From Actinomycetospora chiangmaiensis DSM 45062 (GTDB lineage: Bacteria > Actinomycetota > Actinomycetes > Mycobacteriales > Pseudonocardiaceae): a DNA stretch of 64,000 bases. How positions within the stretch are numbered: position 1 is the first letter of the stretch; every line of letters begins with the position of its first letter. Where the stretch lies: NCBI RefSeq assembly GCF_000379625.1, contig NZ_KB903219.1:124001-188000 (forward strand). Direction: 5' to 3'. The position numbers and the translations under genes are program-made. A model generated the notes under the pieces. It made no database searches, was not told where the DNA came from, and saw only the letters and a list, made by a program, of their open reading frames with translations. Positions 5,539 to 64,000 of this stretch are shown here, one piece after another.

Positions 5539-5553
5539 TTCCCGACGACGGGT
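5539..5553 (+). repeat. 15-mer TTCCCGACGACGGGT
   Basis: Exact copy in the divergent gap between the MFS gene and mscL. Confidence 0.9.
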
Positions 5554-5707
5554 GACCGCGTCGCGCGCGTGCCCGGGCGCGCCCGACGACCGACGCGCCC
5601 GCCCTGCCGGCTCCCCCCCCAACCGGCGTGGCGGGCGCGTCCGTCCGTGAGGTCCGGTTACGCTCGGTGCGCATCTGTGGCGATCGAGCGATATGGAGGG
5701 CCCTCGG

Positions 5708-6145
5708 GTGCTGAAGGGGTTCAAGGACTTCCTGCTCCGCGGCAACGTGGTCGACCTCGCGGTGGCCGTGGTGATCGGAGCGGCGTTCACGGCGGTCGTC
5801 ACCGCGTTCACCAGCGCGTTCCTCAAGCCGCTCATCCAGCTCGCCACGGGCGGCGGGGGACAGCTCGCGGGGACGTTCACGGTCAACGGGGTCGTCTTCG
5901 ACTACGCGTCGTTCCTCAACGCGCTCATCACGTTCGTGATCACCGCGGCCGTCATCTACTTCCTCGTGGTCCTGCCGCTCAAGATCGTCGCGGAACGACG
6001 CAAGCGCGGTGAGGAGGCCGGGCCGGCCGAGCCCACCGACGTCGAGCTGCTCACCGAGATCCGTGACCTGCTGCGCGAGCAGGCCCGCGGTCCCCGCCGC
6101 GACGACGGCGGCACGGCCGGTCGGATCCCGCACCAGGACCGGTAG
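5708..6145 (+). CDS. mscL: Large-conductance mechanosensitive channel MscL
   Basis: 145 residues, normal for the family. The near-invariant N-terminus LKGFKDFLLRGNVVDLAVAV, two transmembrane helices, the periplasmic loop and a C-terminal helix (ELLTEIRDLLREQ) are all present. The homopentamer opens under membrane tension and releases solutes during hypo-osmotic shock. The GTG at 5708 was chosen because GGAGGG lies 7 nt upstream and the protein then begins at the conserved LKGF; an in-frame ATG at 5693 would overlap that ribosome-binding site. Confidence 0.95.
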   Translation: MLKGFKDFLLRGNVVDLAVAVVIGAAFTAVVTAFTSAFLKPLIQLATGGGGQLAGTFTVNGVVFDYASFLNALITFVITAAVIYFLVVLPLKIVAERRKRGEEAGPAEPTDVELLTEIRDLLREQARGPRRDDGGTAGRIPHQDR

Positions 6146-6159
6146 GTGCGCTGCGCGCC

Positions 6160-6201
6160 CGTGAGCACGTGCCGTGGTCATAGCCACGGAAAGTGCTCAC
6201 G
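6160..6201. terminator. 42-nt palindrome at the end of mscL and the GT-C gene
   Basis: CGTGAGCAC (6160-6168) pairs with GTGCTCACG (6193-6201). An inner CCGTGG/CCACGG stem with loop TCATAG is separated by a 3/3 internal loop. It sits between two convergent genes and has the same 42-nt length and outer arm as the palindromes at 10221 and 19035. Confidence 0.7.
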
Positions 6202-6203
6202 AG

Positions 6204-8429
6204 CTACTGCACGGCCCAGTACGAGAAGGACCGGTAGTCCGGGTACGGCGCGAGGAACGGCTGGCGCGGCCCGAGCGTGATCTGCAGCTCCGGGGAGGTC
6301 ACGGCGGCCGCCGGGATCGTGAACGTCGACTGGGCCCACGAGTGCTCGGCGCCCGGTGCGAGCCCCGGCACCTCGGTGGCGAACGCCCAGTCCCCCACGC
6401 CCCGGCCGTCCACGCCCACCGAGACCACACCGGCCCCTGTGTTGCGGTCCTTCACCGGCTCGCGGGCGTCCACCCGGGCCGTCAGCGTGACGGGCCGACC
6501 GGGGGTGAGGCCGCGCAGCGTGAAGTGCTCACCGCCCACCACGTGGCGGCCACTGTCCACGACCACCCGCCCCGCGACGTCCTGGTTGCGGACCTCGGTC
6601 TGGTCGGCGACCCCGACGAGCGCGCGGTCCACGCCGTAGCCGTGGGCGGCCTCGTCGGCGAGGTCGCCGACGTTGACCCGGTCCACGATCCGTCCCGGCA
6701 CCGCCTCGTCGGGCAGGTCGCCGCTGCCCACGTGCGACCAGTCCGCGCGCCACACGCTGATCACCGGGCACCCGCCGGCGGTCTGGCAGATGCCGCCGAA
6801 CGGGCCGCCGTCGCGCTCCGGGCTCTTGAGGTCGAACGACGTGACCGGCTCGTCGCCGAGGATGCGGGCGCGCGAGAGCTCCCCGACCGGCACGAGCTGC
6901 GTGTCGTCGAAGATGGAGAAGTACGAGGGCCGCTGGGCCGGCGGCAGGTGCGCGAGCTGCTCGTACATCGCGCCCGAGCCCTCGATCGCCGGGCGGGCGA
7001 AGCCGGGGGTGGTGAGCCCGACGAGGTCGACCACGCGCCGGTCGGAGAACCACGCGACGGCGCCGACGTCGTTCACGGCCACGACCGCGTCCGGGGGTGT
7101 GTTGCCCCGGATCCACTGCGCCACCGACACCGCCGACTCACGGATGCCCGCCGCCTGCTCGCCCTGGCGCAGCGCCCACGTCGGCGCCGAGACCAGGGCG
7201 AACGCCGCGAGCACCGCCACCAGACCCGTCGTCAGGACCCGGCCGCTGCGCGCGTCGGAGGCCGCCCGTCCGACCGCACGGACGCCGAGCACCGCGAGCA
7301 GTACGACGACCGGCAGGAACGGCTGCAGGTAGCGACCGTCGTGCCACAGCGCGGTCTGCAGCGTCGCCACGGCGAGCAGCACGCCCGCGAGCCCGAGCGC
7401 GAGGACCCCGGCCAGGACCCGTCGTCGGGACCCCACCGCGGCGAGCCCGATGGCCGCGAGGATCGCGACGCCCGGCCCGGCCACCGCCGTCGTCGTGAGG
7501 CCGCCGATCAGCTCCAGCGCGGTGGTCGCGGTGGTGTCCACCCGGTCGACCACCTCGAGCGGCGACCCCAGCGGCCGGCTGAACCACGACTTCGCGACGA
7601 CGCCGGAGTTCTCCGCCGACCCCGTCACCAGCCGGTAGAGCCCGAACTGCGCGAGCGCCGCCACCGGCGGCAGCACCAGCAGGAGGGCCTTCCCGACGGC
7701 TGGTCGGCGCCGGCCGCGCAGGAGCGTCACCACTGCTCCGGCGAGCACGACCAGCACGAGGACGAGTCCCTCGGGGCGGGTGACGGCGAGGGGGAGCGCG
7801 ACGAGCGGGGTCGCGACGAAGCGCCGGCGCGGCTGCTCGCGGACGAAGGCCAGCAGCAGGCCCGCCACGAGGACCGCGACGAGCGCGACCTCCATCCCGC
7901 TCGTGACGCCCCAGAGCAACGGTCCGCACACCGCGGTGAGTGCGGCCGCCGCCGTGCCGGTGCGTCGCGAACCGAGCTCCCGGCCCAGCAGCGCGACCAG
8001 GACCACCGTCGCGACGAAGCAGACGACGCCGAACGCGACCGCCGCGTAGAGCAGCAGCCCGGACGGGACCACCACGGAGGCGGCGCCGAGCAGCAGGACG
8101 TAGAGCAGGCTGCTCGCACCCGTCGTCCGGGGGGCGCCCGCCTGGTAGCGCAGGAACTCGCCGAGCCCGATCTGCCGGGCGTACTGCAGGTGGATGTAGA
8201 CGTCGTCGAGCGGGGGGACGAACCGGCCCTGGTTGTGCGCGGCGTTCACCACGACGACCGCGAGGGCGGTCAGGAGGGCGAGCACGCCGACGCCCACGAG
8301 CGCGCGGTCACCGACCAGGCGCCTCCAGTGGGGCTGCACCCGTTCCCCGTGTGGGTGATCCGCCGCGGCGGCCGGGCGCGTCGGGTCCGGCTCCAGCTCG
8401 GGATCGGAGATCGTCGGGCCCCTGGTCAC
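6204..8429 (-). CDS. GT-C membrane glycosyltransferase (AftB/ArnT-like layout)
   Basis: 741 residues. A short cytosolic N-terminus and one helix lead into a first external loop containing LDDVYIHLQYARQ, the Asp-Asp catalytic position of GT-C enzymes that use polyprenyl-phosphate sugars. About ten more hydrophobic helices follow, and the last ~250 residues form a soluble extracytoplasmic domain. The size and the position near glfT2 and dprE genes recall AftB (Rv3805c), the enzyme adding terminal beta-(1->2) arabinofuranose from DPA. I cannot prove orthology from motifs alone. The GTG start follows GAGGAGG by about 10 nt. It diverges from the acyltransferase gene across a 383-bp gap. Confidence 0.7.
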   Translation of the reverse strand: MTRGPTISDPELEPDPTRPAAAADHPHGERVQPHWRRLVGDRALVGVGVLALLTALAVVVVNAAHNQGRFVPPLDDVYIHLQYARQIGLGEFLRYQAGAPRTTGASSLLYVLLLGAASVVVPSGLLLYAAVAFGVVCFVATVVLVALLGRELGSRRTGTAAAALTAVCGPLLWGVTSGMEVALVAVLVAGLLLAFVREQPRRRFVATPLVALPLAVTRPEGLVLVLVVLAGAVVTLLRGRRRPAVGKALLLVLPPVAALAQFGLYRLVTGSAENSGVVAKSWFSRPLGSPLEVVDRVDTTATTALELIGGLTTTAVAGPGVAILAAIGLAAVGSRRRVLAGVLALGLAGVLLAVATLQTALWHDGRYLQPFLPVVVLLAVLGVRAVGRAASDARSGRVLTTGLVAVLAAFALVSAPTWALRQGEQAAGIRESAVSVAQWIRGNTPPDAVVAVNDVGAVAWFSDRRVVDLVGLTTPGFARPAIEGSGAMYEQLAHLPPAQRPSYFSIFDDTQLVPVGELSRARILGDEPVTSFDLKSPERDGGPFGGICQTAGGCPVISVWRADWSHVGSGDLPDEAVPGRIVDRVNVGDLADEAAHGYGVDRALVGVADQTEVRNQDVAGRVVVDSGRHVVGGEHFTLRGLTPGRPVTLTARVDAREPVKDRNTGAGVVSVGVDGRGVGDWAFATEVPGLAPGAEHSWAQSTFTIPAAAVTSPELQITLGPRQPFLAPYPDYRSFSYWAVQ

Positions 8430-19076: not shown

Positions 19077-20006
19077 GGCAGGGCACCTCCGAAGCTCCCC
19101 CTCCCATCCGAGCTGCGTCATGCGCCGTGCGAGGAGCGCCGCCGTCCGGCAGGCGTCGCCCACCTCCTCGGTGCCGAACGAGAACCGCGCCCGCCCCTCG
19201 ATCTCGGCGGCGTTGTCGCGTTGCCGGTCGGCGTACGCGGTGCGCCGGTTCGCGTGGAAGCGCCAGCCGTCGAGTCGGGCGGTCAGGGTGCCGAGCGGCA
19301 GCTCCCATTCGTGATCCTCGATGCGACGTCGGCCCTCGACGATCCGCGGCACCTGACGGACGCCGTGCGGGAGACCGTGCGCGGTGAGGACGTCGTGCGA
19401 GAAGTCCGCCTCGAGCGTCGACTCCACGCCTTCGACCAGCAGCGTCGCCGCTGCGAGCAGGGCCTTGCCGTAGCGACGCGGTGGCCGGTCCGTGAGCTCC
19501 TCGAGGAGCGCCGTGCCGTCCATCCGCCGGGCGGCGGCACCCGCCGTCAGGACCCGCATGGCATCCCGCGGACCCGCGGCGGCCACGGCGAGGTCGACGA
19601 GGGTCCGGGCCTTCGTCGTCACCGGCGGGTCGGCATCCGTCACGATGTACCGGAAGGCCCGGCTCCGGTGCACGACGACGCCCGCGCAGCCCCGGGCCGA
19701 GGACGTGTACGGCACGGTGACGTGCGCCGGCCCGTCGTCGGGACAGCCCGGGAAGCCCCAGAGCGCGCCCGCGGAACCGTGGCTCAGAGCCGCCGGCCCC
19801 CACACGAAGAGCAGGGCCGCCCGCCGTCGGACGTGCGGTGCCAGCTCGCCGGTGAAGAGCGCGTACACCCCGTGGAGGACCGGGACCCAGCGCCGGGCCC
19901 CGACGTTGGCCTCGATCATCTCGTCGGTCACGCCGTACCGGAGGAACTGCTCACGCGTGAGCAGGCCGTCCTGCGCGGCCGCCAGCTCCAGGAGTTCCGC
20001 TGTCAC
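19065..20006 (-). CDS. AbiEi-antitoxin-domain protein with DUF559-like C-terminus
   Basis: 313 residues. The N-terminus (LAAAQDGLLTREQFLRYGVTDEMI) is the winged-helix found in AbiEi-type antitoxins. The C-terminal LDGWRFHANRRTAYADRQRDN resembles the Vsr-like DUF559 fold, where EVDGxxxH carries the active site; the usual Glu is Arg here, so nuclease activity is doubtful. No AbiEii toxin gene is adjacent. The gene interrupts the emb cluster and is bracketed by two near-identical 42-nt palindromes, one over its stop codon and one 49 bp before its start, which looks like an inserted cassette. Role unknown. Confidence 0.7.
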   Translation of the reverse strand: MTAELLELAAAQDGLLTREQFLRYGVTDEMIEANVGARRWVPVLHGVYALFTGELAPHVRRRAALLFVWGPAALSHGSAGALWGFPGCPDDGPAHVTVPYTSSARGCAGVVVHRSRAFRYIVTDADPPVTTKARTLVDLAVAAAGPRDAMRVLTAGAAARRMDGTALLEELTDRPPRRYGKALLAAATLLVEGVESTLEADFSHDVLTAHGLPHGVRQVPRIVEGRRRIEDHEWELPLGTLTARLDGWRFHANRRTAYADRQRDNAAEIEGRARFSFGTEEVGDACRTAALLARRMTQLGWEGELRRCPACEY

Positions 20007-23100: not shown

Positions 23101-23500
23101 CGTCGTCGACGAAGAGCTGCATGCCGACCTGGGCGCCCTGCGGCGAGAGCGGCGGCGTCGTCGAGAAGACCGTCGCGCGCTGCGAGGTGCGGGCGTCGAG
23201 GCTGCGGATCGCCGCGCAGGGGATCGTCGCCGTCATCGACTGCGGGCGGAACGCCACCAGCGGCGCGTCGACCGAGCGGGTCCCGTTCGTGGCGCTGGGC
23301 CACTGGATGGTCGCGGTGTCCTGCACGACCGGCAGGAACGGGTAGACCACCGCGAGCACGGAGCCGAGGCCGCCGAGGAGGATCGCGATCCAGCGCCAGC
23401 GGCGCAGCACGCGCTCGTCGTCCCGTCCCGACGTCGGGTCGGGTCGGGTGCCCTCGTCCGCGGCGCGCGTGGTCGGCGGGACCGAGTCCGAGGTCAGCAC
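20108..23500 (-). CDS. emb: Arabinosyltransferase, Emb family (paralogue 3, EmbB/C-like)
   Basis: 1130 residues, the most EmbB/EmbC-like of the three. SDDGYILGIAR (D284-D285) is followed by GYIGNYYRWFNVPEAPFGWFYELY and VLWMRLPSV, then conserved PFNNGLRPEP and LTPTKWTHHFGAFA, and a long C-terminal carbohydrate-binding-like domain. It transfers arabinofuranose from DPA in the periplasm. The residue aligning by eye with M306 of M. tuberculosis EmbB is W325. The GTG at 23500 follows AGGA by about 9 nt. glfT1 ends 70 bp upstream on the same strand, so it may belong to the wzm-wzt-glfT1 transcript. Confidence 0.93.
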   Translation of the reverse strand: MLTSDSVPPTTRAADEGTRPDPTSGRDDERVLRRWRWIAILLGGLGSVLAVVYPFLPVVQDTATIQWPSATNGTRSVDAPLVAFRPQSMTATIPCAAIRSLDARTSQRATVFSTTPPLSPQGAQVGMQLFVDDGQLTVADRGQQAAQEPVPGGPCNVTITSDFNETVINLGAGADTTLGGDFRPQVVGIYSDLDQNRDPVAGTSVSITPDTRFQTTATELKTAAGILAILCFLGAVWALHVLDTRAGRRAPRLAPRRWWVPTWRDGVVVAGLAVWAVIGSQTSDDGYILGIARARESAGYIGNYYRWFNVPEAPFGWFYELYAVWVQVSDTVLWMRLPSVFMGIVSWLLISREMLPRLGQQVRRSKAAGWAAAMVFLMFWLPFNNGLRPEPVAVISALLAFCAVERAVATRRLAPVALGLVAAAFALAATPTGLMAVAPFLAAARPLFRLVQERVRRLGWLPVLLPILSSGLIVLTAVFADQTYAAVMEANRVRFLIGPNYTWYQEVVRYESLFSVSADGSLERRAPVLLLILGLVVCLVVLLRRNRIKGAALGPSQRLIGTTLLGFLVLALTPTKWTHHFGAFAALGSGMAALTALATSSDVLRSRRNRSLFLAAVFATLALAFTGPNTWWYTNNWGVPWNDKPPSYHGHQASTLLLGVAAVFLVVAAIEHLRGIPEERRDPASGQASFLTTASAPLRDRVRRLRGSRSASAVERRARALRLGSAPIAVICGALVLFQMGSMAKAIDKQWDSFSLGGDVLRTAFSSSCGLADRVKVEGSPAAGILPVAPPFTGVVPSARGVLPIVAPQVPLAPGQQPAPLPPDTVPASSPLAQLVDPNPVNDGFHAEGAVPPTGGGTGVSGYEYTLRNDLSSQVLGTYDPTGRATGTLRTPWQSVDDSLRSGNTPLVISVAGRLDGGNSLFLQYAKRFPDGRIQILGSDQLGGGSGNEPPWREIKVNLASGKGATADEVRLVAQDRALGPDGWLAIAPMRGPKLVPFTQAVGTQPGYLEWPVQFASPCLKPFDVSDGIAEVPTYRLIADASQFRIGGETWSQPSAGGPMGWIEVLERQQDVPSYLEGEASLDWGRIEALEPYAPGTVAPDVVHGEKTVWGNHSEGEIGDPPPGIPSPER

Positions 23501-23570: not shown

Positions 23571-24476
23571 TCATGCCCGGCGGAACTGCTCGCGACGACC
23601 GAGCCGGACGAGGCGCAGCCACTCGCGCAGCGCCCTCGGGTCGCGTCGTTCGACGAGGAAGTACCAGCCGAACCGCAGGTGCTCGATGGCGCCGAGCCTG
23701 CGCAGTCCGGGCTGGGCGAGCAGGTAGCCGCGGTTGCGGTAGGTGTAGTACCGCTTGGTCGCGTCGCCCGGATCCTGGGCGTGGAGCCGGCCGCCGAGCA
23801 TCGGTTTGAACTCGTCGGACCCGTCGGGGTGGACGTAGGCCGTCGTCAGGCACGTCCCGTAGGGAAGCCCGGAGCGCATGAGGCGGCGGTGCAGTTCGAC
23901 CTCGTCCCCGCGCACGAACAGGCGGAGATCCGGGACGCCCACCACGTCGAGCGTCGCTGCGCGGAAGAGCGCCCCGTTGAACAGGTGCGCGATCCCGGGC
24001 ATGAGCTCGCCGTCGCCGAACCCGTCGAGGTCGCGGCGCCGGCGCACCCAGGTGAGGCCGCGGCGCAGCGGGAAGGCGAGGCGCTCCGGGTCGGCGGCGT
24101 CGGCGATCACCGGCGACACCTCGGCGAGGCCGCGCCGTTCCGCGACCTCCAGGAGCGTCGCGAGGACGTGCTCGTCGGCGGGGCGCCCGTCGTCGTCGGC
24201 CATCCAGAGCCAGTCGGCACCGGCCGCGAGGGCCGTGAGCATGCCGAGCGCGTAGCCGCCGGCGCCCCCCAGGTTGTGCTGCGAGGGGAGGTAGGTGACC
24301 GGCAGGCCGCAGGACTCGACGACCTCGCGGGTCTTCTCGTCGGGCCCGTTGTCGACGACGACGAGGTGGTCCGGACGCCGGGTCTGCCCGGCGATGACGG
24401 CGAGGCCGTCGGCGAGCAGCTCGGGCCGGTGGCGGGTGACGACGACGGCGTGGACGGTCCGGGTGGGATCCATCAC
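23571..24476 (-). CDS. glfT1: Galactofuranosyltransferase GlfT1
   Basis: 301 residues (M. tuberculosis GlfT1: 304). A GT2 domain starts at VHAVVVTRHRPELL, with NLGGAGGYALGM and the metal motif MADDDG. VRGDEVELHRRL probably provides the catalytic Asp/Glu. The enzyme adds the first one or two galactofuranose residues to the rhamnosyl linker before GlfT2 takes over. The start GTG overlaps the wzt stop as GTGA, and an ATG follows immediately. The order wzm-wzt-glfT1 groups the priming enzyme with the presumed galactan exporter, as in mycobacteria. Confidence 0.94.
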   Translation of the reverse strand: MMDPTRTVHAVVVTRHRPELLADGLAVIAGQTRRPDHLVVVDNGPDEKTREVVESCGLPVTYLPSQHNLGGAGGYALGMLTALAAGADWLWMADDDGRPADEHVLATLLEVAERRGLAEVSPVIADAADPERLAFPLRRGLTWVRRRRDLDGFGDGELMPGIAHLFNGALFRAATLDVVGVPDLRLFVRGDEVELHRRLMRSGLPYGTCLTTAYVHPDGSDEFKPMLGGRLHAQDPGDATKRYYTYRNRGYLLAQPGLRRLGAIEHLRFGWYFLVERRDPRALREWLRLVRLGRREQFRRA

Positions 24477-28235: not shown

Positions 28236-28252
28236 GCTCCGCTCCCGTGAGA

Positions 28253-28292
28253 GCGAAGCGTCGTTGCTGTCATCCAGTGGCAGGGAAGCCAC
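28253..28292 (+). repeat. 40-nt dispersed repeat, intergenic copy
   Basis: It starts GCGAAGCGTCGTTGCTGTCA, and its reverse complement recurs at 14733-14772 inside an emb gene. It lies between two convergent genes, followed 21 bp later by the 15-mer repeat at 28314. Confidence 0.75.
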
Positions 28293-28313
28293 CTCGGCGG
28301 GCCCGGCCGCGCG

Positions 28314-28328
28314 ACCCGTCGTCGGGAA
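28314..28328 (-). repeat. 15-mer TTCCCGACGACGGGT, minus orientation
   Basis: Exact copy, directly abutting the stop codon of the quinone oxidoreductase gene. Other exact copies: 5539, 29927, 33210, 41752, 44337, 50796 and 63248. Confidence 0.9.
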
Positions 28329-29321: not shown

Positions 29322-29328
29322 GCGGCGG

Positions 29329-29334
29329 ACGGTA
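29329..29334 (-). promoter_or_regulatory. -10 hexamer of the quinone oxidoreductase gene
   Basis: TACCGT on the minus strand, 7 nt before GTG 29321; leaderless type. Confidence 0.45.
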
Positions 29335-29387
29335 GTGGTGCGGACGGCCCGACGCAGAAGGGCGAACCGGAAACGATTGCCTCCGGG

Positions 29388-29393
29388 TAAGAT
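29388..29393 (+). promoter_or_regulatory. -10 hexamer of the marR-family gene
   Basis: TAAGAT 7 nt before ATG 29401. No convincing -35 box; leaderless type. Confidence 0.5.
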
Positions 29394-29400
29394 GCAAGGC

Positions 29401-29865
29401 ATGTCCACCTCGGAGGAGCCGCGCTGGCTCGACGCCGAGGAGTGGCGTGCCTGGCGGAACTTCATCGCCGGGCAGGCGCTCCTGCTCGGTCGCCTCGGCC
29501 GTGAGCTCTCCGACGGCCACGATCTCGCGTTCGCCGACTACGAGATCCTGGTCCGGCTCTCCGAGAAGGCCGACCACCGCCAGCGCATGACCTCGCTGGC
29601 CGAGGAGGTCGTCGCCTCCAAGTCCCGGCTCTCGCACCAGGTCGCCCGCCTCGAGGGGCAGGGCCTGGTCCGTCGCGAGGTGTGTGACTCCGACGGTCGG
29701 GGAGTCTTCGCCGTCCTCACGCCGGAGGGCTACGCCCGCCTGCAGAAGGCCGCGCCGGACCACCTCCGCGGCGTCCGCGAGCACTTCGTCGATCTCCTCG
29801 ACGAGGACGAGCGCCGCGTGATGGGCGACGTGATGGAGCGCATCGTCGCGAAGCTCCGCCCCTAG
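29401..29865 (+). CDS. MarR-family transcriptional regulator
   Basis: 154 residues. The winged helix-turn-helix is recognisable at MTSLAEEVVASKSRLSHQVARLEGQGLVRREVCDSDGRG..LTPEG, flanked by the dimerising helices typical of MarR. Ligand and targets are unknown. It diverges from the quinone oxidoreductase gene, the usual placement for a MarR repressor of an oxidative or quinone-stress gene. No obvious palindrome lies in the 79-bp gap. Confidence 0.88.
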   Translation: MSTSEEPRWLDAEEWRAWRNFIAGQALLLGRLGRELSDGHDLAFADYEILVRLSEKADHRQRMTSLAEEVVASKSRLSHQVARLEGQGLVRREVCDSDGRGVFAVLTPEGYARLQKAAPDHLRGVREHFVDLLDEDERRVMGDVMERIVAKLRP

Positions 29866-29926: not shown

Positions 29927-29941
29927 TTCCCGACGACGGGT
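29927..29941 (+). repeat. 15-mer TTCCCGACGACGGGT
   Basis: Exact intergenic copy, 7 bp from the 39-nt repeat. Confidence 0.9.
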
Positions 29942-31276: not shown

Positions 31277-32386
31277 ATGATCACGATCGTCGGCGCCGGA
31301 CTCGGCGGTCTCGTCCTCGCCCGCGTCCTGCACGTCCACGGCATCCCCGCCGTCGTCCTCGAGGCGGAGGCCTCGGCCGACGCCCGTGCGCAGGGCGGGA
31401 TGCTCGACATCCACGAGGAGGACGGCCAGCCCGCCCTTGCGGCGGCCGGGCTCACCGACGGGTTCCGCGCCCTGGTGCTCGAGGGACGCGAGGCGATGCG
31501 CATCCTCGACGCGCAGGGCACCGTCCTCCTCGACGAGCCCGACGACGGGTCGGGCGGCCGCCCGGAGGTCCAGCGCGCGGCGCTACGAGCGCTGCTGCTC
31601 GACGCGCTGCCCGCGGGCACCGTCCGCTGGGGGGCCAAGGTCACCGCGGTACGGGCCCTGGGCGACGGCCGCCACGAGGTGTCCCTCGCGGACGGCACGA
31701 GCCTGACCACCGACCTCCTCGTCGGTGCGGACGGAGCCTGGTCGAAGGTCCGCCCGCTCGTCTCGGATGCCACGCCGACCTACAGCGGCCGGTGCTACGT
31801 CGAGACGTGGCTGTACGACGGCGACACCCGCCATCCCGCGGCGGCCGCGGTCGTCGGCGGCGGGGCACTCATGGCGCTGGCACCCGGGCAGGGCATCTCG
31901 GCCCACCGCGAGAGCGGCGGCACCCTGCACGGGTACGTCGCCGTGGCGCGCCCGCTGTCGTGGTTCGACGAGCTGGAACCCGACACGCTGGTCGAGCGCG
32001 TCGCGCGGGAGTTCGACGGATGGGACCCCGCACTCCTCGCCCTGCTCACCGAGAGCGACACGCCACCGGTGGTCCGGCGGCTCCACACCCTGCCGGTGGG
32101 GCACCGGTGGGAGCGGGTCCCCGGGGTCACGCTCGTCGGCGACGCCGCCCACCTCGCGCTGCCCAACGGGGAGGGCGCCAACCTCGCGATGCAGGACGGC
32201 GCGGAGCTCGCCCTCGCGCTGGCGGCCCACCCCGACGACGTCGAGGCCGCCCTCGCCGCCCACGAGACGGCCATGTTCGCCCGGGCCGAGGCGTCCGCCG
32301 CCGACGGCGAGGAGATGACGTCGCTCCTGTACGGCGCCGACGCACCTCACGGTCTCGTGCGGTGGTTCGAGCAGATGGCTTCCTGA
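31277..32386 (+). CDS. TetX-like FAD-dependent monooxygenase
   Basis: 369 residues of the PHBH class A fold. GAGLGGLVLARVL (dinucleotide site) is followed by GGMLDIHEEDGQPAL, the counterpart of GGTLDLHKGSGQ in TetX. GADGAWSKVR (DG motif), VTLVGDAAHLALP and EGANLAMQDGAEL (GD motif) complete the FAD site. TetX enzymes hydroxylate and inactivate tetracyclines; close relatives act on other aromatic polyketides, so the substrate here is unproven. AGAGGAG lies 5 nt before the ATG. Control by the divergent TetR is likely. The stop codon is embedded in a one-mismatch copy of the 15-mer repeat. Confidence 0.85.
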   Translation: MITIVGAGLGGLVLARVLHVHGIPAVVLEAEASADARAQGGMLDIHEEDGQPALAAAGLTDGFRALVLEGREAMRILDAQGTVLLDEPDDGSGGRPEVQRAALRALLLDALPAGTVRWGAKVTAVRALGDGRHEVSLADGTSLTTDLLVGADGAWSKVRPLVSDATPTYSGRCYVETWLYDGDTRHPAAAAVVGGGALMALAPGQGISAHRESGGTLHGYVAVARPLSWFDELEPDTLVERVAREFDGWDPALLALLTESDTPPVVRRLHTLPVGHRWERVPGVTLVGDAAHLALPNGEGANLAMQDGAELALALAAHPDDVEAALAAHETAMFARAEASAADGEEMTSLLYGADAPHGLVRWFEQMAS

Positions 32387-32443
32387 CGACGGGTGGCCGC
32401 GAGCGTGGCGCCCTCCTGACGTCAGGTGTCAGCGGTGGGCCAC
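32380..32443. repeat. Repeat pair: variant 15-mer plus 39-nt repeat copy 2
   Basis: TTCCTGACGACGGGT (one mismatch to the 15-mer) at 32380-32394, then the 39-nt repeat at 32405-32443 starting GTGGCGCCCTCCTGACGTCA. The same two elements are neighbours at 29881-29941 but with the 15-mer in the opposite relative orientation. Confidence 0.6.
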
Positions 32444-32461: not shown

Positions 32462-33649
32462 CTACGCCGCCACCCGCGCCCGCCGGCCCACCGTCAGCAG
32501 GAACGTCACGAGCACCGCGAGCAGCACCAGGCCCATGAGCAGGATCGAGACCCCGACGCCGACCACGCCGGCGAGCGCCGCGCACACCAGGACCCCGACC
32601 GCCCCGCCGACCGCGAGACCGGGCACCAGCGAGTTCGCCGCCCAGGTGAGGCGCCGCAACAGGGCGAGCGTCACCAGCACGACGGCGATCGGGACCGCCA
32701 CGGCGAACGCCGCGGTGACCGGCGGGACGTGGGCCAGGTGCTCCTCGACGTCCACCGCCGCCTCGATCCCGCCGCCGACCGCCGCCACCGCGCCGAACAC
32801 GACGTAGTGCCCGTAGCCCCACGTCAGGGCGACGCGCAGCGACGTGAGGCCCTCGTCGTCACCGGCGAGGAAGTAGATCCACCACAGCCCGATCACCACG
32901 AACAGCCCACCCAGCCCGAGCGCCAGCAGCCCGACCGAGAAGCCCCCCGCGTTCAGTGCCCCCGCGAAGGCGTTGGTGATCCCCAGGATCACCTCGCCCA
33001 GCACGATCAGCGTGAGCAGGCCGTACCGCTCGGCGATGTGCTCGGGGTGCCACGGCGTCGCCGGTCCCCGGGACTCGGCGAACGGCGGCAGCGACACCTC
33101 GGCGAGGATCAGCACGACCGCGACGACGAAGATCCACGGCGACGGCACGAGCACGAGCGCCACCCAGAGCAGCTGCAGGACGGCGAGCCCGGCGGCGTAG
33201 GTGCGGCAGACCCGTCGTCGGGAAGGATCGCCGGCGGCCGCGCGCAGCCACAGCGCGACCATCGCCACGCGCATGATCGTGTACCCGAGGATCACGGTGC
33301 CGAGATCGCCGTGGAACACGTCCGGGACGCCGACCGCCAGCACGAGGACGCCCGCCATCTTGAGCAGCGCGAGGGCGCGGTACGGGGCGTCGTCGCAGTC
33401 GTAGGCCGAGGCGAACCACGTGAAGTTGATCCACGACCACCAGATCGCGAAGAAGACGAGCAGGTAGCTCAGCAGGCCGGCGCCGAGGTGGTCCTCGGCG
33501 ATCGCGTGGTGCAGCTCGGCCGCGGCGCGGGCGATCGCGACCACGAACGCCAGGTCGAACAGGAGCTCGAGGGGCGACGCGGCGCGGGGCTGCTCCTCCG
33601 GGTCCCGGGCGACCATCGGCCGCCGGCACTCGGTGCGTGGGCTCGTCAC
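32462..33649 (-). CDS. Low temperature requirement protein A (LtrA) family membrane protein
   Basis: 395 residues with about ten to eleven hydrophobic helices. SPLELLFDLAFVVAIA, FFAIWWSWINFTWFAS and HIAERYGLLTLIVLGEVILGI are the recognisable LtrA signatures. The family's activity is unknown; some members affect cold growth. An exact copy of the 15-mer (33210-33224) falls inside the gene and encodes SRRR. No operon partner. The GTG at 33649 is the annotated choice; Met12 is an alternative. Confidence 0.88.
   Translation of the reverse strand: MTSPRTECRRPMVARDPEEQPRAASPLELLFDLAFVVAIARAAAELHHAIAEDHLGAGLLSYLLVFFAIWWSWINFTWFASAYDCDDAPYRALALLKMAGVLVLAVGVPDVFHGDLGTVILGYTIMRVAMVALWLRAAAGDPSRRRVCRTYAAGLAVLQLLWVALVLVPSPWIFVVAVVLILAEVSLPPFAESRGPATPWHPEHIAERYGLLTLIVLGEVILGITNAFAGALNAGGFSVGLLALGLGGLFVVIGLWWIYFLAGDDEGLTSLRVALTWGYGHYVVFGAVAAVGGGIEAAVDVEEHLAHVPPVTAAFAVAVPIAVVLVTLALLRRLTWAANSLVPGLAVGGAVGVLVCAALAGVVGVGVSILLMGLVLLAVLVTFLLTVGRRARVAA
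33210..33224 (-). repeat. 15-mer TTCCCGACGACGGGT, minus orientation, in the LtrA gene
   Basis: Exact copy, translated as SRRR. Confidence 0.9.
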
Positions 33650-41276: not shown

Positions 41277-43068
<1,792 letters not shown>

Positions 43069-44028: not shown

Positions 44029-44556
44029 TCACCGCGTCGTGGTCAGCCCGTCCAGGACGAAGCCTGCGAGCCGGTCGGCGCGGACGGGCCAGGTGTCGTC
44101 GTCGGGGAGGGTCCACAGCCCGGCGAGGAGGGCGAGCACGTCCGCGGGGTCGCGGTCGTCGCGCAGCGTCCCGTCGGCCCGGCCGCGGGTGAGGATGCGG
44201 TCGAGGGCGTCGAGCAGGACGCCCCGCGCCGGCGGGTGGTCGGCGCCGGGGGCGTGCAGCAGGTCGCCGAGCGCCCGCTTCGTTCGCGCGAACTCCACGA
44301 AGCGCAGGAGCCAGCGGGCGAGCGCGACCGACCCCGACCCGTCGTCGGGAACCTCGGCGAGGTCCTCGATCTCCCGGGCGTAGGTGGCCGCGACGAGGGC
44401 CTCGCGGTGCGGGAAGTGCCGGTAGAGCGTCGCGATGCTCACGCCGGCGTCGCGGGCGATCTTCTCCAGCGCGACGTCGGCCCCGTCGATGGCGAATCGC
44501 TGCGCCGCGCTCGCCAGGAGGGCGGCGCGGTTCGCGCGGGCGTCGGCGCGGGGCAC
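44029..44556 (-). CDS. TetR-family repressor of the adjacent SDR gene
   Basis: 175 residues. The N-terminal helix-turn-helix reads RANRAALLASAAQRFAIDG.DVALEKIARDAGVSIATLYRHFPHREAL, as in the AcrR-type set that includes many putative repressors of dehydrogenases. A 15-mer copy (44337-44351) lies in the gene and encodes VPDDG. It is divergent from the SDR gene with two related palindromes between. Confidence 0.88.
   Translation of the reverse strand: MPRADARANRAALLASAAQRFAIDGADVALEKIARDAGVSIATLYRHFPHREALVAATYAREIEDLAEVPDDGSGSVALARWLLRFVEFARTKRALGDLLHAPGADHPPARGVLLDALDRILTRGRADGTLRDDRDPADVLALLAGLWTLPDDDTWPVRADRLAGFVLDGLTTTR
44337..44351 (-). repeat. 15-mer TTCCCGACGACGGGT, minus orientation, in the TetR gene
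   Basis: Exact copy, translated as VPDDG. Confidence 0.9.
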
Positions 44557-50795: not shown

Positions 50796-50835
50796 TTCCC
50801 GACGACGGGTCCGCCGCGCGGACCCGTCGTCGGAA
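50796..50835. terminator. Long hairpin built from two facing 15-mer repeats
   Basis: An exact 15-mer (50796-50810) and a one-base-deleted reverse copy (50822-50835), joined by CCGC-CGC-GCGG, give a 14-bp perfect stem plus TTCC/GGAA with one bulge. It lies between convergent genes (stops at 50780 and 50842). Confidence 0.85.
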
Positions 50836-50841
50836 CCGTGA

Positions 50842-58009: not shown

Positions 58010-61000
58010 TTGGCGGGTGCGCATTCCCGGTCCGCGCGTCACGAGCGTCCGGACCCGCTCGAGGTGCCCCCGCCGTCGGGGCCCGACCTCGACGCCGAGG
58101 ACCGTGACCGTGACTACGGCGAGATTTTCCGGCCGCGGCCGGCCGACGACCCCGCGCCGCCCTCCCCGCCGCTCGGCTTCCCAACCGCACTGTCGTCGTC
58201 CTCGTTCCGTGCTCCCGCCGCCCCGGCCACGCCCGCCGCACCTCCCGCACCTCCCGCGGCCCCCGCGGACCGTCCCGCCCAGCCGGAGCACCGCACCGCC
58301 GCGACCGGCCTGCTGACCGGCTCGCGCCCGCCGCGGAGCGGGTCCTCCGCCACCGCGCTGCAGCAGCCCCTGGCCGTGCCGCCGCCCCCGGCGCGGCCGC
58401 TGCCGGAGGGCCCGGCCGGTCGTGGCCCCGCGGCCCCGCCGCACCGCCCGGTCGGCCACCCGTCGTTCCCCGGCTCCCAGCCCGCCCCCACCGGGCTCAC
58501 CGGCGCCCGGTCCGTCCCCGGCGCGCGGACCGACTCCGGCGTGCAGCCGCGGCCGACGACCCCTCCTCCCGCCCGACCCGGCGCGACCCGGCCGCCGTCG
58601 GCCCCGGCGCCCACCCGGTCCGCGGGACCCGGTCGGCCCGGAGCGCCCACCCGGCCGGCCGTCCCGGCCCAGCCCGGCGTTCCCGCCCAGCCCGGCGTTC
58701 CCGCCCAGCCCGGCGTTCCCGCCCAGCCCGCGAGGCCGGCGCGGCCCGGCCAGGCCGGTGCGCCCACGCAGGCCGGTGCGCCCACCCAGGCCGGACCGCC
58801 CACCCCGGCCGGACCGCCCACCCAGAACTCGGCGCCCGCCCGACCCGCGACCCCCGGCCGGCCGGACGCCCGCGGTGCCGCGGCACCCGCGCCCTCCCGT
58901 CCGGCGACCGCGGGCGGCGCCCCGCGTCCCCCGGCCGCGACCACCGGCGCCCGGACCACGGCGACGCCCGCCCAGCCCGACGAGCGCGCACCCTCGGCGG
59001 CCACCGGCACCGCCGCGGCACCGACGGCACTCGATGATCAGGGGAGTTCCCCCCGGCGCACCCCCGACGGCACCGCGATCGCACCCGCCGTCGGGAAGGA
59101 CGGGCAGGAGAAGGGCGCGGCGGCCGAGCCGACCCGCGCCTCGTCGGGAACGACCACCTCGACCAGCTCCTCCACCACGACGTCCACCACCACCACGACG
59201 TCCACCGCCACCACCACGGCGACCCGGCGACACGGCTCCACCCCGCAGTCGATGCAGACCCGCGCGGAGCGGCGCGCGGCCGGGAAGAACGGGCTCGCGC
59301 GCGCCGCCGGGCGCCGCACCGCCGCCACCCGGGCCACCCCGGGGCGGACGCGGATCACGCGGTCGGAGCCGGCGCAGGACGAGCGCCCGGCCCCGCCGCG
59401 CGGCCGGATCGCCGCGGCGGTGGCCGCGCTGCTGGCGGCCGTCGCCGTGAAGGTCGGGCGCTGGCCCGGCGGGGAGCACCTCGTCCGGGTGGGCCACCGG
59501 GTCGACGACCTGGTGCAGCGCTACCTCGACGGCAAGGACGGCGCGTCGCTGCCGGAGGCCGTGCGGCTGTGGCGTCGGCGCCGGCGGATGGGCTACGCGA
59601 TGCTGGCGACCGCGGTCGGGGTCCCGGTGCTCAGCCTCACCCTGGGCTGGCTGCTGATCCCGGTGCCGAACGCGGACTCCGCCGTCGAGAGCCAGCTCAA
59701 CACCGTCTCGTACTCCGACGGCTCGGTGCTCGCCCGCGTCGCCCCCGGCGAGCAGGGCAACCGCCAGAAGGTGCCGATCTCGCAGGTGCCCCTGCCGGTG
59801 CAGCACGCCGTGCTCTCCGCCGAGGACCGCACGTTCTACACGAACTCGGGCTTCGACGTCTCCGGGATCGCGAAGGCGGCCTGGAAGCAGGTCACCGGCG
59901 GTCAGGGCGGCGGGTCGACGATCACGCAGCAGTACGTGAAGAACGCGATGGTCGGGTCCGAGCACTCGTACTTCCGCAAGTTCAAAGAGCTGATCATCTC
60001 GGCGAAGATCACGCAGGAGTACTCGAAGGACCAGGTGCTCGAGGACTACCTCAACAGCATCTACTTCGGCCGGGGCGCCTACGGCATCCAGGCGGCCTCG
60101 CAGGCGTACTTCGCGAAGTCGGTCGACCAGCTCACGCCGGCCGAGGGCGCGATGATCGCGGGCCTCATCCAGGCGCCGTCGCAGTGGGACCCGGCCGTGA
60201 ACCTGCAGGCCTCGCAGCGCCGCTGGACCTACGTGCTCGACGGCATGGTGTCGCAGGGCTGGCTCTCCGCCGGGGACCGCGCGAACGCGACGTTCCCGAT
60301 GACGATCCCGCCCCGCAAGGTCGGCAACGGCGTCCCGGACGACGACCGCGGCCACATCTACAACGCGGTCAAGGACGAGCTGAAGAGCCTCGGCATCGAC
60401 GAGGACGCGCTGGTCACCGAGGGTCTGCAGATCCAGACCACGATCGACCCGCAGAAGCAGGAGGACGCGGTCACCGCCGTGCGCTCGGAGCTGAAGGGCA
60501 AGCCCGGCAACCTCCGCACGGCCGCCGTCTCGGTCGACCCCCGCACCGGCGCGATCCTCGCCTACTACGGCGGGGACAACGGGTCCGGGCTGGACTACGC
60601 CCAGGTGAAGAAGCAGGCCGGCTCGACGTTCAAGCCGTTCGTCATGCTCGCCGCCCTGCAGCACGACCCGCCGATCGGCATCAGCACCCAGTTCGACGGC
60701 GAGTCGGTGCCCGGCAAGACGGTGCGGAACGTCGAGGGCGCGGACTGCAGCAGCTGCACGCTGAAGCGGGCGATGACGCTCTCCAACAACGTCGTGTTCA
60801 CCGCCCTCGGCAACGAGGTCGGGCCGCAGGCGGTGGCGAACGCCGCCCACCAGGCCGGCATCACGGCGAAGCTCGACAACCCGAACTCGGGGCTCGCGCT
60901 CGGCAACGCCGAGGTCACCCCGGTCGAGATGGCGGCGGCCTACGCGACGTTCGCCAACGACGGCGTCTACCACAAGCCGCACCTGGTGCAGAAGGTCACG

Positions 61001-62140: not shown

Positions 62141-62562
62141 GCGGTCATGTCCAGCGACGCGAGGACCTTCGTCGGCGTGATCCGGACAACGAGCTCCCCG
62201 GGCACCGCGTTGCGCTTCCCGAACTCCTCGGCGCGGTCGGCGCCCATGTAGCGCCCCCCGAGCGCCGTGGCGGTGCGGAGCAGCTCGTCGGGGTCCTCGG
62301 AGAGCGTGACCGTGCCCTGCACCTGCACGAACCCGAACGGCGGTTCCTCGAGGTCGACGCAGAGCGCGACCCGCGGATCCCGGGCGAGGGCCTTCCCCTT
62401 CGCGGTGTCGCGGCCGGTGTTGAACACCAGCGTGTCGCCGTCGAGCATGTACCAGATGGGGGCGACGAGCGGCCGCCCGTCGCTCGCGGTCCAGCCGAGC
62501 TTGCCGGTGCGGGTGCCGTGGGAGAGGAAGTCCCGGACGGCGGGGTCGGTCAGGCTGCTCAT
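62137..62562 (-). CDS. PPOX-class (F420-type) oxidoreductase
   Basis: 141 residues, split beta-barrel flavin/deazaflavin fold: FLSHGTRTGKLGWTASDGRPLVAPIWYMLDGDTLVFNTGRDTAKGKALARDPRVALCVD is the classic first half of PPOX-class F420-dependent enzymes. Substrate unknown. ATG 62562 with TAGGCT 7 nt upstream. Confidence 0.88.
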   Translation of the reverse strand: MSSLTDPAVRDFLSHGTRTGKLGWTASDGRPLVAPIWYMLDGDTLVFNTGRDTAKGKALARDPRVALCVDLEEPPFGFVQVQGTVTLSEDPDELLRTATALGGRYMGADRAEEFGKRNAVPGELVVRITPTKVLASLDMTA

Positions 62563-62569
62563 GACGGCG

Positions 62570-62575
62570 AGCCTA
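62570..62575 (-). promoter_or_regulatory. -10 hexamer of the PPOX gene (leaderless type)
   Basis: TAGGCT on the minus strand, 7 nt before ATG 62562. Confidence 0.45.
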
Positions 62576-62670
62576 GGGAGCCCGGGCCGGGTCCGCTCCA
62601 TGATCATCGGACCCCTGGCGGGCTCCGGTGCTCCGTCCCGGCCCGCTGCGGGTCCGTTCGTCCGGGGAGT

Positions 62671-63126
62671 TCAGCCGCCCGTCCCGAGGGCGCGGGCGAG
62701 CGCCGACGTGGCGGCCCGGGCGGCGACGAGCCCGCCGACGCAGGCGCTCACGTCGATCGTGCCGCCGGGGGCGGTGGCGGGGCAGCCGCGCCCGACGTAG
62801 GTGTCCCGGGCGTTCGTGACGCCGGCGACGGCGGCCGTGACGGCGGGGTCGTTCGGCAGGGCGTTCGCCGCGCTCCGCGCCGTGGAGGCGGTCTCCTCGA
62901 CCCACCGGCCGCAGCGCGGCCACACCGCCCGGGCGTCGGGGTCGGTGTAGCAGGGGTCGGCGAGCGCGAGGCGCAGCTTGTTGCGCGCCGCGTCGGACGA
63001 GCGGTTCTCCGCACCGGGTGCCGCCGCCGCGGTGGACTGCCCGGACGGGATGCTCGCCGGGTTGTCGTCCGCGCAGCCCGCCAGCACCCCCAGCAGGACC
63101 GCCGCCAGGACGACCGCACGCCTCAT
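62671..63126 (-). CDS. Lipoprotein of unknown function
   Basis: 151 residues. A signal peptide with lipobox LAGC (MRRAVVLAAVLLGVLAGC) and a small, partly helical domain with four further Cys (DPCYTDPD..WPRCG, GRGCPA, VSACVGG) that could form two disulfides outside the cell. The start ATG overlaps the ClC stop (ATGA), so it may be co-translated with the channel. Confidence 0.75.
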   Translation of the reverse strand: MRRAVVLAAVLLGVLAGCADDNPASIPSGQSTAAAAPGAENRSSDAARNKLRLALADPCYTDPDARAVWPRCGRWVEETASTARSAANALPNDPAVTAAVAGVTNARDTYVGRGCPATAPGGTIDVSACVGGLVAARAATSALARALGTGG

Positions 63127-64000
63127 CGGTCCGCGCCCGGACGGAGCGTGGCGGCGAGGGTGTCGAGGTCGGCGGACGGTCCGGTGAGGAGCACCCGCGC
63201 ATCGTCCGCCCCGCCGTCCAGCCTCGCGAACGCGGGCGGCGCGACCCACCCGTCGTCGGGAACGGGGACGCGGACGAGGACCCGCTCCTCGGGCAGGTCG
63301 AGCACCTCCCCGGGCCCGAAGGGGCGCCACGTGGCCGCGCCCGGCGGGGTGAGCCGGATGCCGCGTCGCGAGAGCTTCATCGTGTAGATCGTCTCGCGGG
63401 CGACGAGGCGGGAGAGCGCGGTCGCGAGCGCCACGGCGATCATCAGCGGGACGATCAGCGACCACTCGCCGGTGATCTCCGCGACGATGACGACGGCCGT
63501 GATCGGGGCGCGCGTCGCCCCGGCGAGCACGGCGGCCATCCCGACGAGGCCGTAGGCGCCCGCCGGCCCGGCGACGCCGGGGGCGAGGGCGGCGAACCCG
63601 AGGCCGAGCGCCGTGCCGGTCATGGCGCCGAGGAAGAGCGACGGCGCGAAGATGCCGCCCGAGCCCCCGATCGCGAGCGTGAGGCTGGTGGCCAGGAGCT
63701 TCCCGACGAGCAGGACCAGCAGGAACCCGAGCGCGTACCGCCCGGCCACGCCGGCCTGGAGCACGGGGTAGCCGACGCCGTACATCTCGGGCAGCGCGAC
63801 GAGCAGGAGACCGACGAGCACGCCCCCGACGGCGGGCCGCAGCCACTCCGGGCCCTTCCACACCGCGTCGGCGAGATCCTCGAGGCCGTAGAGGGTGCGG
63901 GTGAACGCGACGCCGACGAGCGCCCCGACCAGGCCCACGACGGCGAAGAGGGCGAACTGGGGGAACGACTCGACGGCGAACGGCGGGAGCCGCAGGAACG
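63123..64000 (-). CDS. ClC-type chloride channel/transporter, N-terminus beyond the window
   Basis: About 292 residues visible, open to the window edge. The conserved GGSGGIFAPSLFLGAMTG (anion-pathway motif, GxFxP) is followed by ATRAPITAVVIVAEITGEWSLIVPLM. A C-terminal ~100-residue segment (TIYTMKLSRRGIRL, then PDDGW) may include a partial CBS-like or TrkA-C-like domain. It moves Cl- or exchanges Cl-/H+. An exact 15-mer copy (63248-63262) codes VPDDG. The gating glutamate region and start are not in view. Confidence 0.88.
   Translation of the reverse strand, partial: FLRLPPFAVESFPQFALFAVVGLVGALVGVAFTRTLYGLEDLADAVWKGPEWLRPAVGGVLVGLLLVALPEMYGVGYPVLQAGVAGRYALGFLLVLLVGKLLATSLTLAIGGSGGIFAPSLFLGAMTGTALGLGFAALAPGVAGPAGAYGLVGMAAVLAGATRAPITAVVIVAEITGEWSLIVPLMIAVALATALSRLVARETIYTMKLSRRGIRLTPPGAATWRPFGPGEVLDLPEERVLVRVPVPDDGWVAPPAFARLDGGADDARVLLTGPSADLDTLAATLRPGADR
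63248..63262 (-). repeat. 15-mer TTCCCGACGACGGGT, minus orientation, in the ClC gene
   Basis: Exact copy inside a coding sequence, read as VPDDG. The 33210 copy reads as SRRR, so the DNA rather than the protein is conserved. Confidence 0.9.

What the first reader, a model, noticed from the sequence alone, without database searches (positions are those of the whole stretch)
5539..63262. A 15-mer, TTCCCGACGACGGGT, is dispersed through the window in coding and non-coding DNA
Exact copies: 5539(+), 28314(-), 29927(+), 33210(-), 41752(-), 44337(-), 50796(+), 63248(-). Copies with one change occur at 4138, 7417, 32380, 35578, 42073, 50822 and 59083. A base-composition estimate for a GC-rich genome expects far fewer than one exact copy in 64 kb. 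Inside genes it is read in different frames (SRRR or VPDDG), so selection or spread acts on DNA, not protein. The core CCCGACGACGGG is nearly self-complementary. Candidate roles: a nucleoid-protein, chromosome-segregation or recombination site, a modification site, or the residue of a very small mobile repeat.
Basis: partly seen in the sequence, partly recalled or inferred. Interest (0 to 1): 0.78.

Follow-up and report, generated by a model that had tools for sequence, protein, structure and literature searches.

The report
Genome-wide 15-base tag in Actinomycetospora
A bacterium's genome carries over a thousand copies of one short DNA tag, written into genes and between them mainly by single-base changes, which looks like the self-recognition tags some bacteria use when taking up DNA but has no proven function here.

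Summary
In detail: eight exact copies as stated, plus eight with one mismatch (0.01 expected). The genome has 273 exact copies, 139/134 by strand, and 0 of the reversed control. The unit is a looser core, TCCNGACGNCGGG: 1,336 copies here, 1,221-1,843 in four relatives, 162-297 in three, 18-50 in the ten other genus members searched. The genus is Actinomycetospora. The tag acts at DNA level: variants fall at fixed positions, it skews codon choice in all six frames, gap-free copies are better conserved than their flanks, and it arises by substitution in place. Strands are mixed. About 70% of copies lie in genes; spacer copies favour stop codons and convergent genes, some as inverted pairs that fold as hairpins. 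This is the anatomy of DNA uptake sequences, known to me only from two Gram-negative families. ComEA-ComEC and tad genes are present, but ComEC and the tad ATPase also occur in species without the tag. Best reading: an uptake-like self tag (0.42); main rival: a chromosomal protein's binding site. Chance, Chi/KOPS and a mobile repeat are largely excluded.

The parts
5539..5553 (+). exact 15-mer, intergenic, between divergent predicted genes
28314..28328 (-). exact 15-mer, directly after the stop codon of a zinc alcohol dehydrogenase gene (28329-29402, -), convergent spacer
29927..29941 (+). exact 15-mer, intergenic
33210..33224 (-). exact 15-mer inside an LtrA-family gene, read as PSRRRV; exact in G003, one mismatch in G001
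41752..41766 (-). exact 15-mer, intergenic, between two + strand genes
44337..44351 (-). exact 15-mer inside a TetR-family gene, read as VPDDGS; exact in G016 and G007, one mismatch in G003, absent without a gap in G001
50796..50810 (+). exact 15-mer, left arm of a terminator-like hairpin between convergent genes; a comparable inverted pair is aligned in the four motif-rich relatives
50822..50836 (-). inverted partner of 50796 (two mismatches), right arm of the hairpin
63248..63262 (-). exact 15-mer inside a CLC chloride-channel gene, read as VPDDGW; exact in G007
4139..4153 (-). one-mismatch copy (A10G), intergenic, 3 bp from a gene end, convergent
7417..7431 (-). one-mismatch copy (T1G), in a predicted gene, GSRRRV
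32380..32394 (+). one-mismatch copy (C5T) that carries the TGA stop codon of gene 31220-32386
35578..35592 (-). one-mismatch copy (T1G), antisense in an acyltransferase gene
42073..42087 (+). one-mismatch copy (C5T) in a class-III aminotransferase gene, in a conserved stretch, identical in G003, G007 and G001; may be incidental
59083..59097 (-). one-mismatch copy (A10G), antisense in a predicted gene
7224..7238 (-). core copy (two mismatches to the 15-mer), in gene
19539..19553 (-). core copy (three mismatches), in gene
19730..19744 (-). core copy (two mismatches), in gene, CPDDGP
23425..23439 (+). core copy (two mismatches), antisense in gene
24369..24383 (+). core copy (three mismatches), antisense in gene

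Best explanation
The 15-mer is the commonest form of a highly iterated recognition sequence, [T/G]TCC[C/T]GACG[A/G/C]CGGGT, with the near-invariant core TCCNGACGNCGGG. It became abundant within the genus Actinomycetospora and has been gained, mainly by base substitution in place, in spots that proteins and intergenic DNA tolerate, and then kept (shown). Most likely it works as a self-DNA uptake sequence: DNA from the same clade that carries the tag is preferentially bound and imported by a Tad/Flp-type competence pilus with ComEA-ComEC, and recombination of the imported DNA then enriches and homogenises the tag (inferred by analogy, not shown). In spacers, inverted pairs double as transcription terminators (hairpin shown by folding; termination inferred).
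For: Count and lineage: 1,221-1,843 core copies in 5 species, 162-297 in 3, 18-50 in the 10 other genus members searched, 38 in each of two other genera; reversed control 4-14 per genome. In a draw of 394 class genomes 13 of the 393 others have one exact copy and none has more. Both strands equal: 139/134 in G000, 101/118 in G003. DNA-level constraint: the peptide TRRRE occurs 15 times, 12 coded by ACCCGTCGTCGGGAA with about 0 expected; PDDG 81 times, 65 by CCCGACGACGGG, 8.0 expected. Position-specific tolerance at 1, 5, 10 and 15. In gap-free comparisons, core conservation is nearly independent of flank identity. Gap-free gain in comEC. Permissive sites: spacer density 469/Mb against 213/Mb in genes, convergent spacers 1,025/Mb; 33 of 118 stop-side distances within 10 bp of a stop codon against 6.5 expected; inverted partner at 15 of 109 spacer copies against 1 of 288 genic ones. 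Fewer in DNA not shared with relatives: 7 copies in 69 kb against 16.6 expected, P 0.007. Looser form in two sparser lineages. G000 has a comEA-comEC pair (HHH and SLBB; Competence domain) and a tad-like locus with a T2SSE ATPase and two T2SSF proteins over their cut-offs, followed by small pilin-like genes, one a sub-threshold TadE match. In Micrococcus luteus, an actinobacterium, tad genes are required for transformation (PMC4322843, passages).
Against: No transformation or uptake result for this genus came up in my searches (listings). ComEC and a T2SSE match are found in 15 of 15 genomes searched, including the 8 without the tag, so the machinery does not explain the distribution; no clade-specific receptor was found. 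The M. luteus paper has no occurrence of 'uptake sequence'. Density (about 230/Mb for the core in G000) is below the thousands per genome reported for DUS and USS (PMC3630211, passages; those genomes are about 2 Mb, recalled). All the anatomy would also fit another sequence-specific DNA-binding role. Tag sites are gapped between species more often than random sites, so they also turn over. The depletion in unshared DNA rests on 7 copies and also fits slow accumulation of any motif.
Confidence: 0.42

Rival explanations
1. The tag is the binding site of a lineage-specific chromosome-organising or other DNA-binding protein (nucleoid-associated, nucleoid occlusion, condensation). Selection at each site creates and keeps the copies.
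For: High-information recognition motif with fixed tolerated positions; conserved against poor flanks in gap-free comparisons; no strand polarity, as for non-polar architectural sites.
Against: No clear macrodomain pattern beyond a few thin 330-kb bins in G003. More than a thousand copies, most in coding DNA, is more than known sites of that kind carry (recalled: Noc, SlmA and MatP have tens of sites). Preference for spots just after stop codons and for inverted pairs is not predicted. No candidate protein found.
Confidence: 0.27
2. HIP1-like by-product: a biased repair or methylation process keeps creating the sequence, with no function of the copies themselves.
For: HIP1 is likewise highly iterated and lineage-restricted, and Elhai 2015 (PMC4390886, passages) proposes that methylation-linked repair creates it without selection for function.
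Against: The core is 13 bases, non-palindromic and gapped; HIP1 is an 8-base palindrome whose variants are biased to its first and last nucleotides, whereas here positions 5 and 10 vary too. A context-blind process would not favour spots after stop codons and convergent spacers, unless selection against copies in genes explains it. No methylase was looked for.
Confidence: 0.15
3. Very small mobile repeat: a 15-17 bp unit that inserts around the genome and decays.
For: Sharp edges of similarity; a tandem array with a 16-base period at G000:C1:3853-3931. In 4 of 49 gapped comparisons the whole or nearly whole motif falls in a gap; in one (G001 against G007) the gap is 17 bases and starts at the motif's first base, in a gap-rich spacer, and in the other three it is 37-44 bases.
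Against: 115 of 164 alignable comparisons of exact sites have no gap in the motif. In comEC all ten species without the copy have the same length there. Variants are position-specific, not a neutral decay spectrum.
Confidence: 0.04
4. Polar chromosome signal (Chi, KOPS or other strand-biased motif).
For: Over-represented, in genes and spacers.
Against: In G003, strands are mixed in all 13 of 15 bins of 330 kb (0-4.95 Mb) that hold at least 6 listed sites; neighbours share orientation in 90 of 196 cases, P 0.28 (197 of 219 sites listed). G000 is 139/134.
Confidence: 0.02
5. Chance, codon usage or a repeated protein motif.
For: None beyond GC-rich composition; copy 42073 is in a conserved protein stretch and may be incidental.
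Against: near background in relatives of similar GC content.
Confidence: 0.01
6. Transcription terminator element only.
For: Hairpin at 50796-50836 (minimum free energy -40.6 kcal/mol, z -5.5), with a comparable pair aligned in four relatives; enrichment after stop codons.
Against: About 70% of copies are inside predicted genes and 287 of those 288 have no inverted partner.
Confidence: 0.03

Closest known systems
DNA uptake sequences (DUS) of Neisseriaceae, with dialects
   Same: Short oligomer in very many copies, in permissive regions of genes and spacers, inverted pairs at terminators, variant dialects in related species (PMC3630211, passages).
   Different: Actinobacterium; unrelated and longer, gapped sequence; lower density; no uptake experiment and no receptor (ComP-like) known.
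Uptake signal sequences (USS) of Pasteurellaceae
   Same: Same general anatomy (recalled; PMC7811141 and PMC12616744 seen in listings only).
   Different: Sequence, phylum and machinery; no extended AT-rich flanks here (flank composition; the USS flanks are recalled).
HIP1 of cyanobacteria
   Same: Highly iterated, lineage-restricted, function debated (PMC4390886, passages).
   Different: HIP1 is an 8-base palindrome tied to methylases; this is a 13-base gapped, non-palindromic core.
Noc-binding sites / SlmA sites / matS (recalled)
   Same: Non-polar, dispersed, 12-14 bases.
   Different: Those are palindromic and number in the tens; this one is not palindromic and exceeds a thousand.

Membership tests
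DNA uptake sequence (DUS/USS) | short oligomer far above expectation across the genome | tested here: met
DNA uptake sequence (DUS/USS) | equal on both strands, no replication polarity | tested here: met
DNA uptake sequence (DUS/USS) | sits in permissive sites of genes and is enriched in spacers | tested here: met
   288 genic, 109 intergenic, 13 edge of 410; 49 of 164 alignable exact-site comparisons carry gaps against 409 of 5,914 random ones
DNA uptake sequence (DUS/USS) | inverted pairs acting as terminators | tested here: met
   15 of 109 spacer copies have an inverted partner of at least 10 bp within 45 bp; one hairpin folded; termination itself not tested
DNA uptake sequence (DUS/USS) | kept in core genome, sparse in recently acquired DNA | tested here: inconclusive
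   102/Mb in unaligned against 241/Mb in shared DNA, only 7 copies, P 0.007
DNA uptake sequence (DUS/USS) | lineage dialects | tested here: inconclusive
   sparser relatives show G more often than T at position 1 and G at least as often as A at 10; whether this is a dialect or decay is open
DNA uptake sequence (DUS/USS) | competence machinery present | tested here: met
   ComEC and T2SSE in 15 of 15 genomes, motif or not, so not discriminating; comEA and tad neighbours checked in G000; TadA split in G015
DNA uptake sequence (DUS/USS) | fragments bearing it are taken up preferentially | not testable with these tools
   needs a transformation or uptake assay
DNA uptake sequence (DUS/USS) | specific receptor (minor pilin such as ComP) | not tested
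   tad locus read by eye in G000 and G006 only; no candidate singled out
HIP1-type iterated palindrome | perfect palindrome | tested here: not met
   CCCG/CGGG arms only; asymmetric tolerance
HIP1-type iterated palindrome | cognate orphan methyltransferase | not tested
   no methylase was searched for
Chi / KOPS | strand polarity relative to replication | tested here: not met
Mobile repeat (REP/MITE-like) | clean presence/absence at insertion sites | tested here: not met
   one possible exception among 49 gapped comparisons
Mobile repeat (REP/MITE-like) | mainly intergenic | tested here: not met

The most novel reading that the evidence does not exclude
A clade of Actinomycetospora has evolved a genuine DNA uptake sequence, which would be the first in Gram-positive bacteria as far as I know: a 13-base gapped core recognised by a Tad/Flp competence pilus or ComEA, with sparser, looser forms in sister lineages and next to none in the rest of the genus. 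The genus would thus catch the birth and sharpening of an uptake dialect.
Probability: 0.37. Interest if true: 0.88.

Novelty: new variant of a known kind. Interest (0 to 1): 0.74.

Why it matters
Uptake sequences are textbook examples of molecular drive but, to my knowledge (recalled), are documented only in two Gram-negative families. Here is a DUS-like tag in a high-GC actinobacterium, graded across one genus from near background through sparse to more than a thousand copies, so its origin could be dated and its receptor sought by comparing close relatives. If it is not an uptake tag, it is still a dense lineage-specific DNA recognition sequence that skews codon choice in many genes and whose binder is unknown. 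The 15-mer, its complement and the 12-base core occur in none of the papers held, and searches pairing uptake sequences with Actinobacteria or actinomycetes listed no paper whose title or abstract start reports one there (listings only).

Tried and rejected
Chance and codon bias: rejected. Polar signal: rejected. Mobile repeat: rejected as the main mechanism, with one comparison of 49 gapped ones that could be a 17-base indel. Phage carrier: a scan of viral contigs returned 34 stretches with one exact copy each and none with more, so no carrier was seen; phage and plasmid records were not searched because 15 bases are too short for that tool. A dialect in tag-poor relatives: k-mer counts in 480 kb of G002, G006, G009 and G017 showed no comparable oligomer (only 80-140 kb per species, so a rarer one could be missed). 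Receptor hunt: my comEA pattern found the protein in the five rich species only, so no comparison was possible; tad locus read in G000 and G006 only; nothing decisive. rpoB loci hold no core copy in any of 15 genus members. A shared rpoB match length in the seven motif-bearing species looked like a shared indel, but it only reflects where the profile match starts (positions 2, 3 or 4), so I dropped it.

Biases in my own sampling: the G000 stretches and the G015 stretches were partly placed on known hits, and some of the L085-L159 loci used were fetched because they hold hits, so densities from those samples are inflated; whole-genome counts are not. Gene calls come from a home-made coding model, not a standard gene finder; of ten window genes checked, eight matched Pfam. 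Counts over five related species repeat orthologous sites and are not independent. Conservation was measured in gap-free comparisons only, and part of it may be alignment anchoring; tag sites are gapped more often than controls (for example 22% against 7% at flank identity 0.80-0.85). Copies in conserved protein stretches (window 42073; comEC site 1549) may be there partly for protein reasons, though codon choice at the comEC site follows the motif.
Full report
Observation. The eight exact copies are present at the stated places, and eight further sites have one mismatch; 100 dinucleotide shuffles of the window give a mean of 0.01. The listed copy at 50822 has two mismatches and is the inverted partner of 50796; 9069 and 53158 were missed.

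Distribution. Exact counts in the 18 genus members searched: 273, 192, 219, 193 and 257 in G000, G001, G003, G007 and G016; 10, 6 and 19 in G010, G014 (59% complete) and G015; 1 in G006; 0 in nine. All 43 genomes outside the genus in that search have 0. With up to one mismatch the five rich genomes have 744-963, G010 87, G015 125 and the eight poor genus members searched 2-8. The core TCCNGACGNCGGG counts 1,336, 1,356, 1,843, 1,221 and 1,403 in the rich five, 297, 162 and 270 in G010, G014 and G015, 18-50 in the ten others, and 38 in each of two other genera; the reversed control gives 4-14 per genome. In a wider draw of 394 class genomes, 13 of the 393 others have exactly one exact copy and none has more. 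On an rpoB-region tree of 15 genus members and two outgroups the rich five form a clade (100/100) and the eight poor ones are one side of a branch (94/94); G010 and G015 join at an unresolved fork. This suits a single origin but does not prove it.

What the unit is. Among 43 one-mismatch copies in 464 kb of G000, 36 differ at position 1, 5 or 10 and 3 at position 15; positions 3, 6-9, 13 and 14 never do. Neutral decay of an inserted repeat would not be so selective, so this is a recognition sequence, roughly [T/G]TCC[C/T]GACG[A/G/C]CGGGT, with a preference for C two bases before and one base after. In two sparser lineages the form is looser: in the sites listed, counted, position 1 is G/T/C = 24/17/9 and position 10 A/G/C/T = 19/20/9/2 for 50 of 250 G010 sites, and G/T/C = 53/34/13 and A/G/C/T = 37/45/12/6 for 100 of 212 G015 sites (that pattern excluded A at 1 and G at 15).

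DNA-level action. In 1,446 predicted genes of the rich five, the peptide TRRRE occurs 15 times and is coded by ACCCGTCGTCGGGAA 12 times, with about 0 expected from codon usage; PDDG 65 of 81 (8.0 expected), SRRR 17 of 47 (0.01), PSSG 14 of 30 (0.16), PVVG 19 of 44 (1.5), FPTTG 4 of 8 (0.06). In 442 genes of tag-poor species only 1 of 29 such peptides is so coded. The sampling biases and repeated orthologues noted in Tried and rejected are too small to explain gaps of this size.

How copies arise and persist. Over 140-200 kb of shared synteny in five species, 52 exact sites give 208 pairwise comparisons: 115 gap-free (50 identical, 28 with one mismatch, 19 with two, 18 with three or more), 49 with a gap, 44 not alignable. 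In the gap-free ones motif identity is 0.914 against 0.813 in the flanks, while random 15-base segments have 0.873 against 0.861. Binned by flank identity, the core in gap-free comparisons stays at 0.92-0.95 where controls fall from 0.93 to 0.77, and is fully kept in 50-82% against 12-51%. Against this, tag sites are gapped more often than controls in most bins (for example 22% against 7%), and some of the excess identity may be alignment anchoring. The clearest case is comEC: all five rich species have ATCCCGACGACGGGTGC on the antisense strand and all ten others have the same length of other sequence; the protein reads APVVG in the four rich species shown in frame and APLVG, APVVG or similar in most others, so the change is nearly silent. 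At another comEC site the protein stretch DFRTAGL is shared, but the rich five and G010 spell its middle CGG ACG GCG, a core match, where five of the nine others use CGC ACC GCC. Four of the 49 gapped comparisons have the whole or nearly whole motif in a gap; one gap is 17 bases and starts at the motif, in a gap-rich spacer, the others are 37-44 bases, so occasional insertion or deletion of the unit is not excluded.

Where copies lie. In 1.584 Mb of the rich five, 410 core copies: 288 in predicted genes (183 sense, 105 antisense, all six frames), 109 in spacers, 13 on edges; 213/Mb in genes and 469/Mb in spacers; convergent 1,025/Mb, co-directional 535/Mb, divergent 312/Mb. Co-directional spacer copies are 29 sense and 25 antisense, which speaks against a transcript-sense RNA signal. 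An inverted partner of at least 10 bp lies within 45 bp at 15 of 109 spacer copies and 1 of 288 genic ones. Of 118 distances from spacer copies to neighbouring stop codons 33 are within 10 bp, against 6.5 expected; near starts there is no such excess, 2 against 4.5. The pair at 50796-50836 folds at -40.6 kcal/mol, z -5.5, and a comparable pair is aligned in the other four species. In the complete G003 chromosome 197 of 219 sites could be listed; strands are mixed, neighbours share orientation in 90 of 196 cases (P 0.28), and five pairs within 100 bases were found where 0.7 is expected. Copies are sparser in DNA not shared with the relatives: 7 in 69 kb against 241/Mb in widely shared DNA, P 0.007.

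Mechanism. What is shown: a lineage-specific, non-polar, DNA-level recognition sequence gained mainly by substitution and kept. What is inferred: that the recogniser is a DNA-uptake apparatus. The inference rests on the match of anatomy with uptake sequences as described for Neisseriaceae (permissive regions, intragenic copies, inverted pairs at terminators, core-genome retention, dialects; PMC3630211, passages). It also rests on machinery in G000: a comEA-comEC pair and a tad-like locus, whose ATPase and two T2SSF proteins pass Pfam cut-offs while the TadE match is below cut-off and the Flp label is mine by eye. Tad genes with comEA/comEC are the combination used in Micrococcus luteus and reported as frequent in Actinobacteria (PMC4322843, passages; PMC6370729, passages). 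Against it, ComEC and the T2SSE match exist in the tag-poor species too, and no receptor or uptake result is at hand. A chromosome-organising protein is the main rival; a HIP1-like repair by-product (PMC4390886, passages) is less likely because the motif is neither palindromic nor placed at random.

Verdict. It is not mainly a mobile repeat and not a polar segregation or recombination signal. I file it as uptake-sequence-like, not as a proven uptake sequence.

Noticed in passing
window 28251-28300 (-), 14743-14790 (+), 13468 (-): A second, about 50-base, mostly intergenic repeat (with TGCCACTGGATGACAGCAACGACGCTTCGCTGCCAC), 15 hits in 584 kb of G000, 1-7 in the samples of the other rich species, one in G010, none in G015 or in 480 kb of tag-poor species; several copies sit close beside a copy of the 15-base tag.
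   Followed up: partly
L001 about 1469-1547 (G000:C1:3853-3931): Tandem array of four to five tag-like units with a 16-base period.
   Followed up: no
G015:C9:1814802-1815236 and 1872585-1872983 (L349, L348): The T2SSE (TadA) match is split into two pieces about 57 kb apart in G015, one of the sparser tag carriers; not examined further.
   Followed up: no
window 32380-32394: The C5T variant of the tag supplies the TGA stop codon of gene 31220-32386; this variant could be favoured at gene ends.
   Followed up: no
G003:C1 about 1.98-2.31 Mb and 3.63-3.96 Mb: Two 330-kb bins with only 3 and 4 exact tags against a mean near 12; the second contains rpoB, the first is unexplained.
   Followed up: no
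G010:C2:93291-93377: Three tag copies within 87 bases about 1.5 kb before the ComEC domain match, in or before the start of the expected comEA gene.
   Followed up: no
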